A model generated the notes under the pieces. That model made no database searches. It was not told the origin of the DNA and saw nothing but the letters and a program-made list of their open reading frames with translations. The translations under genes and the position numbers were made by a program. A stretch of DNA of 64,000 nt from Pseudochrobactrum asaccharolyticum (GTDB taxonomy: Bacteria > Pseudomonadota > Alphaproteobacteria > Rhizobiales > Rhizobiaceae), in assembly GCF_003314995.1 (NCBI RefSeq), contig NZ_QNRH01000006.1, positions 124,001 through 188,000 on the forward strand. The letters run 5' to 3'. Positions within the stretch are counted from its first letter, which is position 1. Each line of letters starts with the position of its first letter. Positions 5,540-57,929 of the stretch are shown here, one piece after another.

Positions 5540-5705
5540 GGCGAACTGCACATCCCGACAGAAGACACTTATACCTCGGGGCCTTACTGATCTTTAGGGA
5601 GCTGTCCCTGGAGAGGCTCCTGGGCTTCTTCACACGGCGCCCACCTACGTTGTAGGCACCCAGAGGATCAACCTCTTCATCGTTTGTCGTGGTCGCCACT
5701 TTTTC
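5540..5705 (+). ncRNA. ssrS: 6S RNA
   Basis: 6S RNA mimics an open promoter and sequesters housekeeping RNA polymerase in stationary phase. The region between zapA and the cyclo-ligase has no credible gene but can form the long irregular 6S rod. GGCGA (5540-5544) pairs with TCGCC (5692-5696), and GACAGA (5557-5562) pairs with TTTGTC (5683-5688). The interior carries the strongly conserved alphaproteobacterial blocks TCGGGGCCTTACTGATC and GGCGCCCACCTACGTTGTAG. A TATATT at 5527-5532 lies at the right distance to be the -10 element. The ends are approximate, to within about 5 nt. Confidence 0.88.
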
Positions 5706-5776
5706 TCTTTGCTCTAAAGTTTGCAATTTGCCCGCTTATTCTGTTTTATCAGGCAGAATAATGACAGGGGGCAGAT

Positions 5777-21238: not shown

Positions 21239-22465
21239 ATGACAGGACAGATGATGGGATCAATGGTGAAAATGCGCGATACACGTCTTGATGTTTTCAG
21301 GGCGCTGGCATTGCTGAGCATTTTTATCAATCACGTTCCGGGCACGATCTATGAGAAATTCACGCATCGCGAATTCGGTTTTTCCGATTCTGCGGAAGCA
21401 TTTGTGCTGATTTCCGGTCTTGCTGTTGCACTTGCCTATAGTTCCAAATTTGTTGAAGGCAATCGCCTGCTGCTGTCTCTGAAAATGGCACGCCGCTCGA
21501 TGACGCTTTATATGGCGCAGATGATGACAACACTCATCACGCTGGCGATTTTCGGTTTTACCGCGATTTATATGAAGCGGCCGGAAATGCTGGAAATGAT
21601 CAACATTAAAACCGTGATGGAGCAACCGGCGCAGGCTTTTGTCGGTCTGGTCACACTTGGCCACCAGCTTGGCTATAATAATATTCTGTCGCTCTATCTG
21701 GTGCTGATGCTGTTTGCGCCGCTGATGCTGTATCTGTCGCGGATCAGTATTTCACTGATGCTGACGATCTCCGGTTCGATCTGGTTTTTGTCCGGTTATT
21801 ATCACATTGCACCGGTGAACTACCCGACGCAGGGCGTATGGTTCCTGAACCCGCTGTCATGGCAGTTCCTGTTTGCCATTGGTATCGGTGCGATGACCTA
21901 CGTGAAGCAGGGCGGTCGTTTTGACCAGAACCGTCCGCTGATGATTGCGGCGATTTCTTATCTGGTTTTCTCCTTGTTGTGGCTGCGCGTTCCACATCCG
22001 AACTGGGATATTTCTTTCGGCCTGCCAGCGGTACTGACCGGCTTTGACAAGACCTATCTCTCGGCCACCCGCTTGCTGCATGTGCTGGCGATTGCTTATG
22101 TGATTGCAGGTATTCCTGCATTGTCGGCAAAAGCCCGTCTGGATATGAAGCATCCGCTGGCAATTCTGGGTAAACATTCGTTGCCGGTCTTTATTGCCGG
22201 TACCATTCTGGCGATGATCGGTCAGGCACTGCGCTATGTTTATCCGGTGAGCCTGTCCTTCGATACACTGCTGATCGCGAGTGGTATTATGGCTCAGTTT
22301 GCGCTGGTCTATTATCTGGAATGGCTGCCGCGTATCGGCTGGAAAGGCAAAGCGGTTGCGAAAGCCTCTGTGCCTGATGTTACGCCGCCGGATATGCGGC
22401 CTGCGGAAGGGCGCAATAAATCCCGTCCGATACCGGTTAAACCTTATTCAGTGACTGCGCATTAA
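21239..22465 (+). CDS. opgC: OpgC-family membrane protein (glucan modification)
   Basis: An integral membrane acyltransferase-like protein that in relatives adds succinyl groups to osmoregulated periplasmic or cyclic glucans. From RDTRLDVFRALALLSIFINHVPG onward the N-terminus is diagnostic. The conserved FGFSDSAEAFVLISGLAVALAYS follows, then about nine further membrane segments; the cytosolic tail (from about residue 375) is basic. The start is uncertain: in-frame ATGs exist at 21167, 21239, 21248, 21251 and 21263. 21239 is chosen because AAAGGCAGG lies upstream. It is followed by a small RNA-like terminator structure. Confidence 0.88.
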   Translation: MTGQMMGSMVKMRDTRLDVFRALALLSIFINHVPGTIYEKFTHREFGFSDSAEAFVLISGLAVALAYSSKFVEGNRLLLSLKMARRSMTLYMAQMMTTLITLAIFGFTAIYMKRPEMLEMINIKTVMEQPAQAFVGLVTLGHQLGYNNILSLYLVLMLFAPLMLYLSRISISLMLTISGSIWFLSGYYHIAPVNYPTQGVWFLNPLSWQFLFAIGIGAMTYVKQGGRFDQNRPLMIAAISYLVFSLLWLRVPHPNWDISFGLPAVLTGFDKTYLSATRLLHVLAIAYVIAGIPALSAKARLDMKHPLAILGKHSLPVFIAGTILAMIGQALRYVYPVSLSFDTLLIASGIMAQFALVYYLEWLPRIGWKGKAVAKASVPDVTPPDMRPAEGRNKSRPIPVKPYSVTAH

Positions 22466-22518
22466 CCAAATATTAAAGTTAACGAATGAATATAAGGCTA
22501 TCCGGTTTTGCCGGACTC

Positions 22519-22597
22519 TTACCGAGTGGACTTGGTCCCTCTGTATGACGCCTCCCTGTTAAACTTCTGAGAGCCGCTTTCGCGGCTCTTTTTTTAT
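22519..22597 (+). ncRNA. Candidate MmgR/suhB-family (alpha-r8) small RNA
   Basis: About 79 nt with an ACCGAG/CTTGGT hairpin (loop TGGA) and a single-stranded CCTCTGTATGACGCCTCCCT stretch. An intrinsic terminator follows (GAGAGCCGC-TTTC-GCGGCTCTTTTTTT, 22569-22597). Size, two-hairpin layout and the unpaired anti-Shine-Dalgarno-like GCCTCCCTG match the alphaproteobacterial MmgR RNA, which limits polyhydroxybutyrate storage in Sinorhizobium. The family match is from memory of the motif, so the RNA call is firmer than the family name. It could alternatively be just the opgC 3' end. Confidence 0.6.
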
Positions 22598-41700: not shown

Positions 41701-41788
41701 CCCACTTGCGTGCAGCCAGGCTTTTATATAGCTTCGTCAGTGGGCCACTTCTCCCCAACGGGAAGCGTGCTATCTGAAAGGGTAGATA
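41701..41788 (+). ncRNA. Predicted serC leader RNA
   Basis: Structured leader directly before serC. CCCACT (41701-41706) can pair with AGTGGG (41739-41744). A CTTCTCCC-CAAC-GGGAAG hairpin and a TATCT-GAAAGGG-AGATA hairpin follow, ending a few nucleotides before the ATG. This fits the alphaproteobacterial serC leader motif described from comparative genomics, but the identification is from memory of the motif. AGTGG could alternatively pair with CCACT at 41745, giving two exclusive folds. Confidence 0.6.
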
Positions 41789-41792
41789 CAAA

Positions 41793-51814: not shown

Positions 51815-52228
51815 ATGAAAAATGATTATGAAAAACAGCTTCGTGATGCGGGTGTGCGGATTACGCGTCCCAGACGTGTCATTCTCGATATCCTGTCTCA
51901 GACGGAAGGGCATCCGGATGCTCTGGAAATTTTCCGTCGTGCAGTTGAGGTTGATAGCAGTATTTCATTATCGACCGTCTATCGGACAATGAAATTGCTG
52001 GAAGAGCAGGGCGCTATTCATCGCCATGCTTTTGACGGTGGCCCGTCCCGTTTCGAGCAGGCCGGTAATCAGCATCATGATCACCTGATTGATATGGAAA
52101 CCGGTGATGTGATCGAGTTTCACTCTGAAATGATTGAGAAATTGCAAGAAGAAATCGCCCGCTCGCTGGGGTATGAAATCATTCATCACCGCTTTGAGCT
52201 CTATGGCCGTAAAATTAAAAAGCAATAG
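51815..52228 (+). CDS. Fur-family metalloregulator (Fur/Mur-like)
   Basis: A 137-residue winged-helix regulator. [26 protein letters not shown] and [19 protein letters not shown] give the DNA-binding domain (about 12-70), and [34 protein letters not shown] the metal-binding region. No cysteine is present, so the CXXC zinc site of E. coli Fur is missing, as in the manganese-responsive Fur/Mur proteins of Hyphomicrobiales; the metal is not decided here. The start at 51815 has GGGGA 9-13 nt upstream; frames from 51773 or 51800 are less likely. Its neighbour downstream is the candidate sRNA. Confidence 0.88.
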
Positions 52229-52272
52229 AATTAATATATCAGAATTTATTTTTAAATAATTTGGTTTTGTGT

Positions 52273-52297
52273 GAAACCATTTCAAATGACGGGCGTT
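52273..52297 (+). promoter_or_regulatory. Possible EcfG promoter for the candidate sRNA
   Basis: GAAAC (52273-52277), 16 nt, CGTT (52294-52297); one mismatch from the GGAAC-N16/17-CGTT general stress promoter. Predicted start near 52304, three nucleotides before the first hairpin. Confidence 0.4.
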
Positions 52298-52303
52298 GTA
52301 GTG

Positions 52304-52425
52304 ATTGTGAAAGGCTAACAATCTGCCCCCTCACAGTTCAGCCTTTCACGCACCGCGGGTATGCCCCCTAATCCCACGGTCTGCGCGCTTCAGGAATTCA
52401 GTTTTCGGAGCGCGCTATTTTTTTG
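52304..52425 (+). ncRNA. Candidate small RNA with two C-rich loops (GsrN-like?)
   Basis: Three hairpins lie in the Fur to HWE-kinase gap. The first has perfect 10-nt arms GTGAAAGGCT (52307-52316) and AGCCTTTCAC (52340-52349), with a 23-nt loop. The second has ACCGCGGG (52352-52359) and CCCACGGT (52373-52380) with one mismatch and a 13-nt loop. The third is an intrinsic terminator, GCGCGCT/AGCGCGC (52383-52415), followed by TATTTTTTTG. Both loops carry the identical 8-mer TGCCCCCT (52324-52331 and 52362-52369). C-rich loops and linkage to general stress genes recall GsrN of Caulobacter, but homology is not shown. The strand is set by the T-run. Confidence 0.72.
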
Positions 52426-52477
52426 TCTGAATGGCTGAGTTTATTGAGCGCGTCAGAACAAGCGCTTTAAAAATGTT

Positions 52478-53521
52478 TTAAAAATCGAAATTCCGGTGCG
52501 GTATACGCAGATAATATTCCACGCTGTCTGATTTAATTGAATAATGGGCAGTGCCGCTGACCGCCTGCGGAACAATGCGCAGCAAAACAGCGCTGCCGAA
52601 GCGGGATGTATCAGGTTGCGGCTTGTGCAATGCCGGAATATCCGGCGGATGGTCTGTACTGTCCGGCGGGCAGGTTTGCTCTTTCCAGTGGATGATCAGA
52701 TCCATCTCGCCTTCACCATCAGGCTCCAGTTCCGCAGCGATAGTCAGCCTGCCATGTTCGCAGGCGAGTGCTCCATAGGAGGCGGAATTGACGATCAGCT
52801 CATGGAAAGCAAGCCCGACATGCAAGGCTGCACCCGGAAACAGATAGGCATCCTGACCGGTGATAGTGAGACGCGGATCTTTCGGGTGAATATATTTCTC
52901 TAATTGGGAAAACAGCAAGTCGCGAAAGGCGGCACCATGCCAGTTTGAATCGGTGACCAGATCTTGAGAATGTGAGAGCGAATGAAGACGTCCGCGAAAT
53001 TTTTGCAAAAACTGGTCAACAGAGCCGGAAAAACGGGCTGTTTGCATGGCGATGCTTTGAATGATAGCCAGCAGATTTTTGGAGCGGTGGCTGACTTCCC
53101 GCAACAGAATTTTTAAAACCTGCTCACGGTGTTTCAGCTCGCTGATTTCGACAGCGGTCGTGACCACGCCGATGATGTTACCTTCTTCATCCCTGTCGCC
53201 ATCGATAAAGAATTCATACCAACGCGGGTTTTTCTTATCGGGAAAAGACAGTTCCAGCCGCTGGGCATCACCTGTCGCAAGCAGTTGGTTTTTGGCGGTG
53301 ATCAATTGGCTGGCAATGTCTTTCGGCATCAGCTCATTTTCGCTGATGTCGGGGCGCCATGGCAAATGCCAGAAATCAGGCAGGTTCTCTGCCCAACTGT
53401 AAATCAGATTTGGGGTTTGGTAAAAAACAGAAACATTGCTGTTCCGGATGGCTCGCAACAGGGAGCGTAAGCGGATTTGGCCGGTGCTGCTATATCCTGA
53501 CACGGGAGATGTGTGAGCCAT
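52478..53521 (-). CDS. HWE-family histidine kinase with PAS domain
   Basis: A soluble sensor kinase of 347 residues from the chosen ATG at 53521 (an upstream ATG at 53575 would add 18). The N-terminal half is a PAS-like domain (about 15-130; PWRPDISENELMPKDIAS and WYEFFIDGDRDEEGNIIGVVTTAVEISELK). The phosphoacceptor box is LLREVSHRSKNLLAIIQSIA with H145. The ATP site has N245 in FHELIVNSASYGAL, and the HWE hallmark W-K-E is at 279-281. HWE kinases activate PhyR in the general stress response. Position beside phyR-nepR-ecfG strongly suggests it is the PhyK-type kinase. No membrane segments. Confidence 0.87.
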   Translation of the reverse strand: MAHTSPVSGYSSTGQIRLRSLLRAIRNSNVSVFYQTPNLIYSWAENLPDFWHLPWRPDISENELMPKDIASQLITAKNQLLATGDAQRLELSFPDKKNPRWYEFFIDGDRDEEGNIIGVVTTAVEISELKHREQVLKILLREVSHRSKNLLAIIQSIAMQTARFSGSVDQFLQKFRGRLHSLSHSQDLVTDSNWHGAAFRDLLFSQLEKYIHPKDPRLTITGQDAYLFPGAALHVGLAFHELIVNSASYGALACEHGRLTIAAELEPDGEGEMDLIIHWKEQTCPPDSTDHPPDIPALHKPQPDTSRFGSAVLLRIVPQAVSGTAHYSIKSDSVEYYLRIPHRNFDF

Positions 53522-53642
53522 AAGATAGACTTTCTGTACTTCAGATCTGGCTTGAATTGCTAATTGTTGAGGCATGCCAGAAGACAGACACGGGACGCAG
53601 CGCCGGCGTCCCGATTGGCTTATTAAGTTGAATGTGTCTCAT

Positions 53643-53933: not shown

Positions 53934-54728
53934 TTATGCGTGCGCGGGTGCACTTTCCTCAAAAAACAGCGCCTGACTGATCAGAGCCTTGACCATGTCC
54001 GGATTGAACGGTTTGGTGACGAGGAAAGTCGGTTCTGATCTTTCGCCTGTGAGCAGACGCTCCGGAAATGCCGTGATAAAGATCACCGGAATAGCATCGG
54101 TTTTCAGGATATCATTGACCGCATCAATACCGGAGCTACCGTCTGCGAGCTGAATATCCGCCAAAACCATGGCCGGTTTTTCTGCATTATAAAGCGTCAG
54201 AGCTTCCTGATGCGTGCGGGCAATGCCGACAACCTCATGCCCCAGTGTTTCCACCATCTGCTCAATATCCATGGCGATCAGTGGTTCATCTTCAATAATC
54301 ATAATGCGGGTGGCGACATGGCGGGAAATCTGCTCGGAGGCTTCCGAGAGCAGGGCAGAGAAGCCTGCTTCATCTTCCTGCAGGATTTCTGCGGCTTCTT
54401 TATCGTTGAAGCCTTCGACAGAAACCAGAAGGAAAGCCTGACGTGAACGTGGTGTCAGCATAGCCAGATTTTGCGATGCGCGCTTTTCCCATGGGTGTTG
54501 CTGGCCATGATCCGGTATTTCAATGGTCGTGCGGTCGAAAATACTGGAATAAAGCCGGTAGAGCGCTATCTTATCAGATGAACTGTCCGGAAAGACTGAA
54601 ATGTCATCAATAAGCGCTTCAAGGATTGCTGCAACATATGCATCTCCTGCTGATTGTGAGCCGGTAACGGCACGTGAGAAACGGCGGAGGTAAGGCAGAT
54701 GCGGTGCAATACGCGTAGACAATGACAT
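53934..54728 (-). CDS. phyR: PhyR response regulator (anti-anti-sigma factor)
   Basis: Controls the general stress response: phosphorylated PhyR binds NepR and frees sigma EcfG. At 264 residues the N-terminal sigma-like domain (about 5-125; HLPYLRRFSRAVTGSQSAGD and TPRSRQAFLLVSVEGFNDKEAAEIL) mimics sigma regions 2 and 4. The C-terminal receiver (about 140-258) has the phosphoacceptor Asp191 in MVLADIQLADG, IIEDEP at its start and VTKPF for the Lys. Start at 54728, with GGAG upstream; ATG at 54740 adds four residues. A consensus EcfG promoter lies upstream (54779-54803). Confidence 0.96.
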   Translation of the reverse strand: MSLSTRIAPHLPYLRRFSRAVTGSQSAGDAYVAAILEALIDDISVFPDSSSDKIALYRLYSSIFDRTTIEIPDHGQQHPWEKRASQNLAMLTPRSRQAFLLVSVEGFNDKEAAEILQEDEAGFSALLSEASEQISRHVATRIMIIEDEPLIAMDIEQMVETLGHEVVGIARTHQEALTLYNAEKPAMVLADIQLADGSSGIDAVNDILKTDAIPVIFITAFPERLLTGERSEPTFLVTKPFNPDMVKALISQALFFEESAPAHA

Positions 54729-54778
54729 TGAATGCTCCATTTATATCGGCAGTCAGCAGACTGCCTGTTTATGGTTCT

Positions 54779-54940: not shown

Positions 54941-55198
54941 ATGACCAATAAGAACAAAACGCTTCAGGACCAAGATAACGCTATGACCTCATTTTCGCGC
55001 GAGGATTACGCGCAAAACAGCCAGCATTCGGGCAGTTCAAATAAGGGGGATGAACTGGGCGCAAATTCGGAGATCGGTACAAAACTCCGTGCGCTTTATT
55101 CCAGTATTCAGGACGAGACGATTCCTGACCGTTTTCTTGATCTTTTGGAGAAACTTGATCAGGCCGAACGTAAATCTGCTTCTCATTCAAGGAATTAA
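54941..55198 (+). CDS. nepR: Anti-sigma factor NepR
   Basis: Holds EcfG inactive until PhyR-P captures it. The 85 residues have a disordered N-terminal half and the conserved two-helix core GTKLRALYSSIQDETIPDRFLDLLEKLDQA (about 46-76). An ATG at 54983 is a possible alternative start. It precedes ecfG by 5 nt, so the anti-sigma and sigma are co-translated. Divergent from phyR, the classical arrangement in alphaproteobacteria. Confidence 0.93.
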   Translation: MTNKNKTLQDQDNAMTSFSREDYAQNSQHSGSSNKGDELGANSEIGTKLRALYSSIQDETIPDRFLDLLEKLDQAERKSASHSRN

Positions 55199-55203
55199 GA
55201 GGA

Positions 55204-55752
55204 ATGGCGGAGGAGAGAGACGAATTCAAGCGGCTGATGCTTGCAGCCTTACCGGGCCTGCGAGCCTTTGCCGTGTCGCTGTCAGGTCAGCAGGATAAAG
55301 CTGATGATCTGGTGCAGGATACGATTATGAAAGCCTGGGGCAAACGTGACAGCTTTGAGATGGGCACCAATATCAAAGCCTGGCTGTTTACGATTTTGCG
55401 TAATGAATTTTACAGTCAGATGCGCAAGCGCGGCCGTGAGATACAGGATTCTGACGGTTTTTATACAGAGCGTCTGGCAGTGCATCCGTCTCAATATGGT
55501 TCGCTGGACTTGCAAGATTTCCGCAAAGCTTTGAATGAGCTGCCGGATGATCAGCGTGAAGCCATTATTCTGATCGGCGCTTCCGGCTTTTCCTATGAGG
55601 AAGCGGCAGAAATTTGTGAGTGCGCTGTCGGCACAATCAAAAGCCGTGTCAGCCGTGCGCGTGTCCGCTTGCAGGAACTACTCGATATTAAAGGCAATTC
55701 TGATTACGGGCCGGACGAAGCGTCATCACAAGTGACAATGCGCTCTTTTTAA
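55204..55752 (+). CDS. ecfG: General stress sigma factor EcfG
   Basis: An ECF sigma factor of 182 residues (ECF15 type). Region 2 (about 15-85) has DDLVQDTIMKAWGKRDSFEMG and IKAWLFTILRNEFYSQMRK. Region 4 (about 110-165) has ALNELPDDQREAIILIGASGFSYEEAAEICECAVGTIKSRVSRARVRL. GAGGA precedes the ATG. Its promoter consensus (GGAAC-N16-CGTT) appears several times in the surrounding 6 kb, so it directs its own regulon here. Confidence 0.95.
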   Translation: MAEERDEFKRLMLAALPGLRAFAVSLSGQQDKADDLVQDTIMKAWGKRDSFEMGTNIKAWLFTILRNEFYSQMRKRGREIQDSDGFYTERLAVHPSQYGSLDLQDFRKALNELPDDQREAIILIGASGFSYEEAAEICECAVGTIKSRVSRARVRLQELLDIKGNSDYGPDEASSQVTMRSF

Positions 55753-57599: not shown

Positions 57600-57929
57600 T
57601 TAGCGCCGTGTCAGAGCAGCGACGAGATAGCCGAAGGCTGCAGCCAGTGCGAGCGATGTCACCGGACGCTCCTGCACATAATCTGTAACCTGCTGTTCAA
57701 CCGAGCAGGCGCTGCTTTTGAGTGAGTTCAAAGCATCTTCGCCCTGTTCATAAGCATCATTATAGGCATCGGATGCGTCTTGTCTGACCTGATTGATCTT
57801 ACGTGATCCCATATCTGTCAGTGTGGCGGCAATCGCAGCAATATCTTCTTTAAGCTGGGCAATCTGCGCCTGCAATTCTGCAGTGCTTTCGTCCTGAACG
57901 TCATTTACGATTTTAGTTTCACGAGCCAT
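57600..57929 (-). CDS. YqjD/ElaB/DUF883-like membrane-anchored protein
   Basis: A 109-residue protein. A charged helical N-terminal region (1-85; STAELQAQIAQLKEDIAAIAATL and NQVRQDASDAYNDAYEQGEDAL) ends in a hydrophobic C-terminal anchor, RPVTSLALAAAFGYLVAALTRR. Family members bind ribosomes and anchor them to the membrane in stationary phase in E. coli. A consensus EcfG promoter lies 60-84 nt upstream, so the gene belongs to the general stress regulon. Confidence 0.85.
   Translation of the reverse strand: MARETKIVNDVQDESTAELQAQIAQLKEDIAAIAATLTDMGSRKINQVRQDASDAYNDAYEQGEDALNSLKSSACSVEQQVTDYVQERPVTSLALAAAFGYLVAALTRR

What the first reader, a model, noticed from the sequence alone, without database searches (positions are those of the whole stretch)
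52273..52425. Candidate stress sRNA with two identical C-rich loops next to the EcfG locus
Two successive hairpins each present the same 8-mer TGCCCCCT in the loop (52324-52331 and 52362-52369), and a terminator hairpin with T-run follows. An EcfG-like promoter (GAAAC-N16-CGTT, one mismatch) predicts a start 3 nt before the first stem. The RNA sits in the gap between a Fur-family gene and the HWE kinase of the general stress locus. Caulobacter GsrN, a sigma-T-controlled sRNA with a C-rich targeting loop, is a precedent, but here the loop is duplicated. It could target G-rich ribosome binding sites on many mRNAs.
Basis: partly seen in the sequence, partly recalled or inferred. Interest (0 to 1): 0.78.

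Follow-up and report, generated by a model that had tools for sequence, protein, structure and literature searches.

The report
Stress-locus small RNA, two C-rich loops
Next to the genes that run the general stress response of a Pseudochrobactrum-like bacterium lies what looks like a real small regulatory RNA with two C-rich loops; it belongs to an already recognised kind of stress RNA (GsrN- or ReC64-like), and repeated C-rich loops are also found in a good share of its relatives.

Summary
TGCCCCCT occurs at 52324-52331 and 52362-52369, each at the tip of a strong hairpin; a terminator hairpin with seven Ts follows (fold z -5.37). The promoter-like boxes of GAAAC-N16-CGTT (52273-52297) and the core GCCCCCT of both tips are kept in all 7 genomes of the genus held.

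By blastn the RNA is confined to the genus; no Rfam family matches. But in 16 of 40 other loci of the family (11 genera), just past the HWE kinase and facing it, an EcfG-type promoter is followed by C-loop hairpins. With the exact promoter, 12 have two or three C loops, against 3 of 2000 random stretches.

This is a known kind: R. etli ReC64 (same position, EcfG-dependent) and the GsrN-like RNAs predicted at these loci in 2018. So it is a new member; the repeated loop is not special to this window.

Likely mechanism: EcfG-induced RNA whose C tips pair with G-tracts of mRNAs. Expression, targets and direction are untested. GsrN's target katG is absent; ribosome-site matches are not enriched over control.

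The parts
52273..52297 (+). EcfG-type promoter: GAAAC, 16 nt, CGTT
   Evidence: sequence; TGTGAAAC and CGTT invariant in 7 of 7 genus genomes while 13 of the 16 spacer positions vary; 15 of 40 other family loci have the exact GGAAC-N16/17-CGTT at this place
52240..52260 (+). AT-rich conserved block with a small ATTTA-TTTT-TAAAT dyad upstream of the promoter; possible UP element (guess)
   Evidence: 18 of 21 positions invariant in the genus alignment
52304..52424 (+). predicted small RNA, about 121 nt (start inferred from the promoter, end from the T-run)
   Evidence: fold z -5.37 for 52300-52425; present in 7 of 7 genus genomes; one match in own genome
52306..52350 (+). hairpin 1, with CCCCCTCA in its tip loop
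52324..52331 (+). C-rich motif 1, TGCCCCCT
   Evidence: GCCCCCTCAC kept in 7 of 7 genus genomes, one with an extra C
52352..52380 (+). hairpin 2, with GCCCCCTA in its tip loop
52362..52369 (+). C-rich motif 2, TGCCCCCT
   Evidence: GCCCCCTA invariant in 7 of 7 genus genomes
52383..52424 (+). terminator hairpin (52383-52415) and T-run (52418-52424)
   Evidence: stem core and first five Ts invariant in 7 of 7; not reported by the simple scan
51815..52228 (+). FUR-family regulator gene, upstream neighbour
   Evidence: Pfam PF01475; no NCBIfam model over its cut-off
52478..53575 (-). HWE histidine kinase with PAS domain, convergent downstream neighbour
   Evidence: Pfam PF07536, PF08448
53934..54740 (-). 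phyR, response regulator / anti-anti-sigma factor
   Evidence: NF006623 over cut-off; Pfam PF22029, PF22233, PF00072
54941..55198 (+). nepR, anti-sigma factor
   Evidence: Pfam PF18557
55204..55752 (+). ECF sigma factor, taken as ecfG
   Evidence: NF009169 and NF009199 over cut-off; called EcfG from its place beside nepR and phyR (inference)

Best explanation
[quoted passage not shown] Stress activates PhyR, PhyR takes up NepR, and freed EcfG starts transcription at about 52304 from GAAAC-N16-CGTT (inferred). The RNA of about 120 nt ends at its own terminator. Two hairpins present GCCCCCU at their tips, which pair with G-tracts in leaders or ribosome-binding regions of mRNAs and so change their translation or stability (inferred from GsrN; direction and targets unknown). 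Two loops would give two equivalent or slightly different seeds (GCCCCCUCAC and GCCCCCUAA). Shown here: sequence, structure potential, conservation, synteny, promoter conservation. Not shown: transcription, EcfG dependence, pairing.
For: Fold z -5.37. Present in 7 of 7 genus genomes, with invariant promoter boxes, C cores and terminator stem core. 15 of 40 other family loci have at the same place an exact EcfG promoter plus C-loop hairpins (12 with two or more loops), and one more with one promoter mismatch. Exact EcfG-promoter matches followed by two or more CCCC loops: 12 of 165 in these loci, all 12 in this gap, against 4 of 3000 and 3 of 2000 random stretches. G050 and G142, of another genus, keep C-run+TCA(C) in the first tip and C-run+TAA in the second, on different stems. 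R. etli ReC64, downstream of phyR-tcrY: EcfG1 motif, start mapped by 5' RACE, reporter expression abolished in ecfG1 mutants, activation in E. coli by either EcfG (passages of PMC3892343); northern detection in stationary phase (passages of PMC2881028). GsrN pairs with the katG leader through its C loop, shown by compensatory mutations (passages of PMC5869019).
Against: No expression data for this organism were available to me. The -35 box is GAAAC in all 7 genus genomes, one off consensus. Covariation within the genus does not exceed shuffles (146 of 500). 24 of 40 family loci gave no such RNA; of 18 kinase-bearing negatives rescanned with a looser promoter only one did, and 7 negatives were not rescanned. 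In 4 of the 15 exact cases (L075, L080, L099, L113) an open frame of over 200 codons covers the stretch, so coding overlap is not excluded there. The loops depend on the length folded: in the longer folds, L083 loses its second hairpin and L084 folds otherwise. Outside the family 1 of 40 loci has a promoter with two C loops (1 of 146 promoters; random 4 of 2000). One paper's matrix scan gave ReC64 overlapping SigA and RpoH promoters, not EcfG (passage of PMC4167512). No enrichment of matching ribosome sites. katG is absent.
Confidence: 0.75

Rival explanations
1. No separate RNA: the hairpins are the 3' end of the FUR-family mRNA and a two-way terminator between convergent genes.
For: The stretch lies between convergent genes and ends in a terminator hairpin. 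The sigma-70-type scan of 52100-52600 gives one weak site on this strand (3 in all on both strands, shuffle mean 1.0).
Against: Promoter boxes invariant in 7 of 7 while the spacer varies. A terminator needs no conserved C-rich tips. In L077 and L078 promoter and loops lie about 760-800 nt past the FUR gene, and 11 of the 16 positive loci have no FUR match in the 12.8 kb at all.
Confidence: 0.1
2. A real small RNA, but its C loops serve something other than mRNA ribosome sites: binding a protein, sponging G-rich regulatory RNAs, or pairing elsewhere in mRNAs.
For: Matches to ribosome sites are not enriched (6 of 60 against 5 of 30 control sites). In Agrobacterium PmaR most predicted C-rich contacts are not close to the ribosome site or start codon (passages of PMC6234868).
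Against: GsrN, the nearest studied case, pairs with an mRNA leader. One gene, coding for a bestrophin-like protein, keeps GAGGGGGC before its ATG in 7 of 7 genus genomes although the sequence further upstream has diverged.
Confidence: 0.13
3. Chance: a stable palindromic stretch with a promoter-like match.
For: Each word alone is unremarkable: the 8-mer is within chance, and a nine-base promoter pattern is expected about once or less in 64 kb (my estimate).
Against: Conservation in 7 of 7 genomes and recurrence at the same place in 16 of 40 other family loci.
Confidence: 0.02

Closest known systems
ReC64 of Rhizobium etli (PMC3892343, PMC2881028, PMC4167512; passages seen, figures not)
   Same: Place (intergenic, downstream of phyR and its histidine kinase tcrY), EcfG consensus motif, small trans-encoded RNA, stationary-phase and salt-shock expression there.
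   Different: Its sequence was not in the text I saw, so loops and homology are not compared. Reported transcript 88 nt, here about 120 predicted. Expression shown there, not here. Here the -35 box is GAAAC.
GsrN of Caulobacter and the predicted GsrN-like RNAs of R. etli, S. meliloti, Brucella abortus and others (PMC5869019; section 14 read whole, passages of others)
   Same: EcfG/sigma-T promoter, C-rich loop near the 5' end, typically beside the GSR locus.
   Different: The paper's BLASTn found sequence homologs only in Caulobacteraceae. It describes one 5' C-rich loop; here there are two alike. GsrN's proven target katG is absent from this genome.
Bsr6 of Brucella abortus (PMC12772402; abstract, introduction and passages seen)
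   Same: Small RNA that needs the GSR sigma factor RpoE1 and has its box in the promoter.
   Different: Its position and sequence were not in the text I saw, so identity with an RNA at this locus is open. Its deletion did not change mouse spleen colonisation.
PmaR of Agrobacterium (PMC6234868; passages seen)
   Same: C-rich loop that acts on several mRNAs.
   Different: One loop; EcfG is not mentioned in the main text (0 occurrences); restricted to Agrobacterium and one Rhizobium strain.

Membership tests
GSR-locus sRNA (ReC64/GsrN-like, by the criteria of PMC5869019) | lies next to ecfG-nepR-phyR | tested here: met
GSR-locus sRNA (ReC64/GsrN-like, by the criteria of PMC5869019) | near-consensus EcfG promoter | tested here: met
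   GAAAC-N16-CGTT, one mismatch, boxes invariant in 7 of 7
[quoted passage not shown]
   predicted: hairpin 1 loop CCCCCTCA; a second in hairpin 2
GSR-locus sRNA (ReC64/GsrN-like, by the criteria of PMC5869019) | intergenic transcription that depends on the sigma factor | not testable with these tools
   no transcriptome on hand for this organism
GsrN proper (Caulobacteraceae) | sequence homology to GsrN | not tested
   GsrN sequence not fetched; blastn with this RNA hit 3 of 199 family genomes, all of the genus, own included; PMC5869019 reports GsrN hits only in Caulobacteraceae
GsrN proper (Caulobacteraceae) | katG leader as main target | tested here: not met
   no PF00141 peroxidase in the own genome, while Caulobacter among the 14 control genomes gives a match
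any Rfam 15 family | covariance-model match | tested here: not met
   none at gathering score over this stretch; none with E up to 5 in 52200-52480
ReC64 (sequence family) | sequence homology to ReC64 | not tested
   sequence not in the text seen

The most novel reading that the evidence does not exclude
The GSR-locus sRNAs of this family (Rhizobiaceae in the GTDB sense, name recalled) are arrays of one to three C-rich hairpin loops in which stems are freely replaced while loops are kept one by one (C-run+UCAC in the first and C-run+UAA in the second, in two genera). The RNA would be a multivalent EcfG effector that grips several G-tracts, or several mRNAs, at once, with loop number tuned between lineages. 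In this genus it would act without katG, for instance on a bestrophin-like membrane protein whose GAGGGGGC ribosome site is invariant in 7 of 7 genomes.
Probability: 0.3. Interest if true: 0.55.

Novelty: new member of a known kind. Interest (0 to 1): 0.4.

Why it matters
If the RNA is made and works, it extends the post-transcriptional arm of the alphaproteobacterial general stress response to Pseudochrobactrum, a genus near Brucella, and gives a simple recognition rule: EcfG promoter plus two or three C loops facing the HWE kinase. The repeated loops make a clean experiment possible (mutate one, the other, both) on whether C-loop sRNAs need more than one seed. It is an extension of known work, not a new principle.

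Tried and rejected
Rfam for a known family: nothing in 52200-52480 at E up to 5. In 11 family loci the gathering search gave 4 matches, all tRNAs. Blastn for homologs outside the genus: none among 199 family genomes (3 hits, all of the genus, own included). Search by synteny worked instead.

Covariation within the genus: 1 pair changed on both sides by RNAalifold, 2 by the other count, not above shuffles; slid structures reach 2 and 3. Given up as proof. No covariance model was built, because stems outside the genus look unrelated.

Targets: katG (absent). AGGGGGCA has 62 sites in the own genome, 2 of them the RNA itself, against 38 for the reversed word. Placement before an ATG with an open frame of 60 or more codons is 6 of 60 against 5 of 30 control sites (30 of the 38 control sites were examined); with GTG and TTG allowed 9 of 60 against 7 of 30; so no enrichment. 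Three candidate ribosome sites were followed through the genus: that of 5-formyltetrahydrofolate cyclo-ligase is whole in 2 of 7 genomes and one change off in a third; the TetR gene was found in 3 of 7 genomes and its site is whole in 2; the bestrophin-like one is kept in 7 of 7. Duplex energies for the last are mildly better than shuffles (4 to 77 of 300 shuffles as good). The model pairs tip 2 in four genomes, tip 1 in two and mainly other bases in G199, and it ignores internal structure. There was no genome-wide control for ribosome-site conservation, so this is a lead only.

Small ORF: each frame of the RNA holds a stop. An ATG at 52361 opens a short frame into the terminator, but that ATG is present in only 3 of 7 genus genomes, which speaks against coding.

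A first alignment mixed strands and was redone. A first script stopped on a missing file.

Full report
WHAT IS THERE. The window most likely lies in a Pseudochrobactrum genome. The six best kinase relatives among named genome records are P. kiredjianiae, P. saccharolyticum, Pseudochrobactrum sp. sp1633, a Rhizobiales isolate, a Brucellaceae MAG and a record titled Bacillus subtilis SK6B4; a seventh, Bartonella, matches only in part. Between a FUR-family gene (51815-52228, +) and an HWE histidine kinase (52478-53575, -) of the general stress locus (phyR 53934-54740 -, nepR 54941-55198 +, ECF sigma 55204-55752 +) is a 249-base gap. It holds, on the + strand, GAAAC-N16-CGTT (52273-52297), a hairpin with CCCCCTCA in its tip loop, a hairpin with GCCCCCTA in its tip loop, and a terminator hairpin followed by T7. 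The two 8-mers TGCCCCCT are exact. The stretch folds far better than its shuffles (z -5.37). It has one match in its own genome and no Rfam match.

CONSERVATION IN THE GENUS. All 7 genomes of the genus held, own included, have it. In the alignment TGTGAAAC and CGTT are invariant at fixed spacing while 13 of the 16 spacer positions vary; GCCCCCT is kept in both tips (one genome has an extra C in the first), and so are the terminator core and the first five Ts. The T before GCCCCCT, which makes the 8-mers identical in the window, is kept in 4 of 7 genomes in tip 1 and 3 of 7 in tip 2. Standard pairs form in 98.3% of 231 cells, and sliding the partner by 1-3 columns drops this to 28-48%. But changes are so few that covariation is not above shuffles (2 pairs changed on both sides; 146 of 500 shuffles reach the score), and two slid structures have 2 and 3 such pairs.

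OUTSIDE THE GENUS. Blastn finds no match in the family outside the genus (3 of 199 genomes hit, all of the genus). I therefore looked by position. From the phyR search of 199 family genomes I picked by hand 40 loci of 40 genomes from the upper part of the ranking (E at most 3e-112, none from the genus). I scanned them for GGAAC-N16/17-CGTT followed by hairpins with CCCC in the loop. Of 165 promoter matches, 21 have at least one such loop and 12 have two or three; random stretches of the same loci have two or more in 4 of 3000 and 3 of 2000. All 12, and three more with a single loop (L082, L086, L113), lie on the strand opposite phyR, 180-600 nt before the end of the HWE-kinase match and facing it, as in the window; the other 6 of the 21 lie elsewhere with one loop each. 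A rescan of 18 negative loci that have the kinase there, allowing one promoter mismatch and CCC loops, added L111 with three loops; 7 negatives were not rescanned. So 16 of 40 loci, in 11 genera (genus labels), have the RNA by this measure, and 24 do not. In 40 loci of the same order but other families (picked), 10 of 146 promoter matches have a C loop and 1 has two (L201); random there is 4 of 2000 with two or more.

Cautions on this count: the random stretches are not matched for intergenic composition; in 4 of the 15 exact cases an open frame of over 200 codons covers the stretch; and the loops depend on the length folded (in the longer folds, L083 loses its second hairpin and L084 folds otherwise).

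The stems look unrelated between genera while hairpins and C tips stay. In genus g51 (G050, G142) the two tips have the same order and endings as in the window, C-run+TCA(C) and C-run+TAA. In my view that is better evidence for selected loops than the genus alignment. In two genomes of genus g17 the promoter begins one base after the FUR-family stop codon.

WHAT IT IS LIKELY TO DO. The most likely reading is an EcfG-induced trans-acting sRNA whose C tips pair with G-tracts of mRNAs. EcfG control is inferred from the conserved promoter and from ReC64 of R. etli, which sits downstream of the phyR-tcrY pair, has the EcfG motif, a start mapped by RACE and reporter expression abolished in ecfG1 mutants (passages of PMC3892343). 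ReC64 is seen on a northern blot in stationary phase (passages of PMC2881028) and rises in saline shock; that last paper's matrix scan, however, gave it SigA and RpoH promoters (passages of PMC4167512). C-loop pairing is inferred from GsrN (passages of PMC5869019). Two things do not carry over. The own genome has no katG-type peroxidase (0 PF00141 matches, with Caulobacter positive among the controls). And complementary words are not enriched at ribosome sites (6 of 60 against 5 of 30 for the reversed word). One lead stands: the leader of a bestrophin-like gene (PF14023) keeps GAGGGGGC before its ATG in 7 of 7 genus genomes while the sequence further upstream has diverged, and it is complementary to GCCCCCUC of tip 1 and GCCCCCU of tip 2. 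Duplex energies are only mildly better than shuffles (4 to 77 of 300 as good), and ribosome sites are conserved for other reasons too.

KNOWN OR NEW. Section 14 of PMC5869019 (read whole) already predicts GsrN-like RNAs beside the GSR locus, with an EcfG site, in R. etli, S. meliloti, Brucella abortus, Agrobacterium radiobacter, Rhodopseudomonas palustris and Bradyrhizobium diazoefficiens, and reports an exposed C-rich 5' loop for the Rhizobiaceae set. In B. abortus the RNA Bsr6 depends on RpoE1 (PMC12772402: abstract, introduction and passages); whether Bsr6 lies at this place I could not see. So this is a new member of a known kind. I found no text that describes two or three C loops as the rule in these RNAs (searches; listings, and passages of the papers named here; figures and supplements not seen), so that generalisation may be new, but it is modest. 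ReC64 itself may have the same loops.

LIMITS. No transcript evidence for this organism. Loops are from minimum-energy folds without an alignment-wide model. The 40 family loci are a hand-picked, high-ranking set, not a random draw. Genera other than Pseudochrobactrum are unnamed in the genome collection, and the family name Rhizobiaceae (GTDB sense) is recalled. The EcfG consensus GGAAC-N16/17-CGTT and the distance from -10 box to start are recalled knowledge. The name UP element for the AT-rich block at 52240-52260 is a guess.

Noticed in passing
window 5540-5698 and 5766-5773: 6S RNA match (RF00013, 44.5 bits, just under the gathering score 46.4) followed by a 5-formyltetrahydrofolate cyclo-ligase gene (PF01812) whose ribosome site holds AGGGGGCA, the complement of the sRNA tips; the site is whole in 2 and nearly whole in a third of 7 genus genomes.
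   Followed up: partly
L255 and homologs L256-L261: Bestrophin-like gene with GAGGGGGC before the ATG in 7 of 7 genus genomes, the best target lead.
   Followed up: partly
window 52240-52260: AT-rich block with a small dyad, 18 of 21 positions invariant in the genus, upstream of the EcfG-type promoter; it might offset the non-consensus GAAAC box.
   Followed up: no
   Followed up: no
window 22454-22595: Rfam match to the alphaproteobacterial sRNA BjrC1505 (RF02356, 56.1 bits).
   Followed up: no
window 41738-41790: serC leader (RF00517, 59.4 bits).
   Followed up: no
window 58013-57989, 54803-54779 and 53906-53882, - strand: Exact GGAAC-N16-CGTT sites, one just upstream of phyR and one upstream of the small gene 57600-57929: possible other EcfG promoters.
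   Followed up: no
L248 between 6S RNA and cyclo-ligase; upstream of the bestrophin-like gene in G000 (L255); downstream of the sRNA in G170 and G200: Similar-looking stretches (around GTTAGAGCGA or GTAGAGCGA, some with palindromic arms) suggest a dispersed intergenic repeat element in the genus.
   Followed up: no
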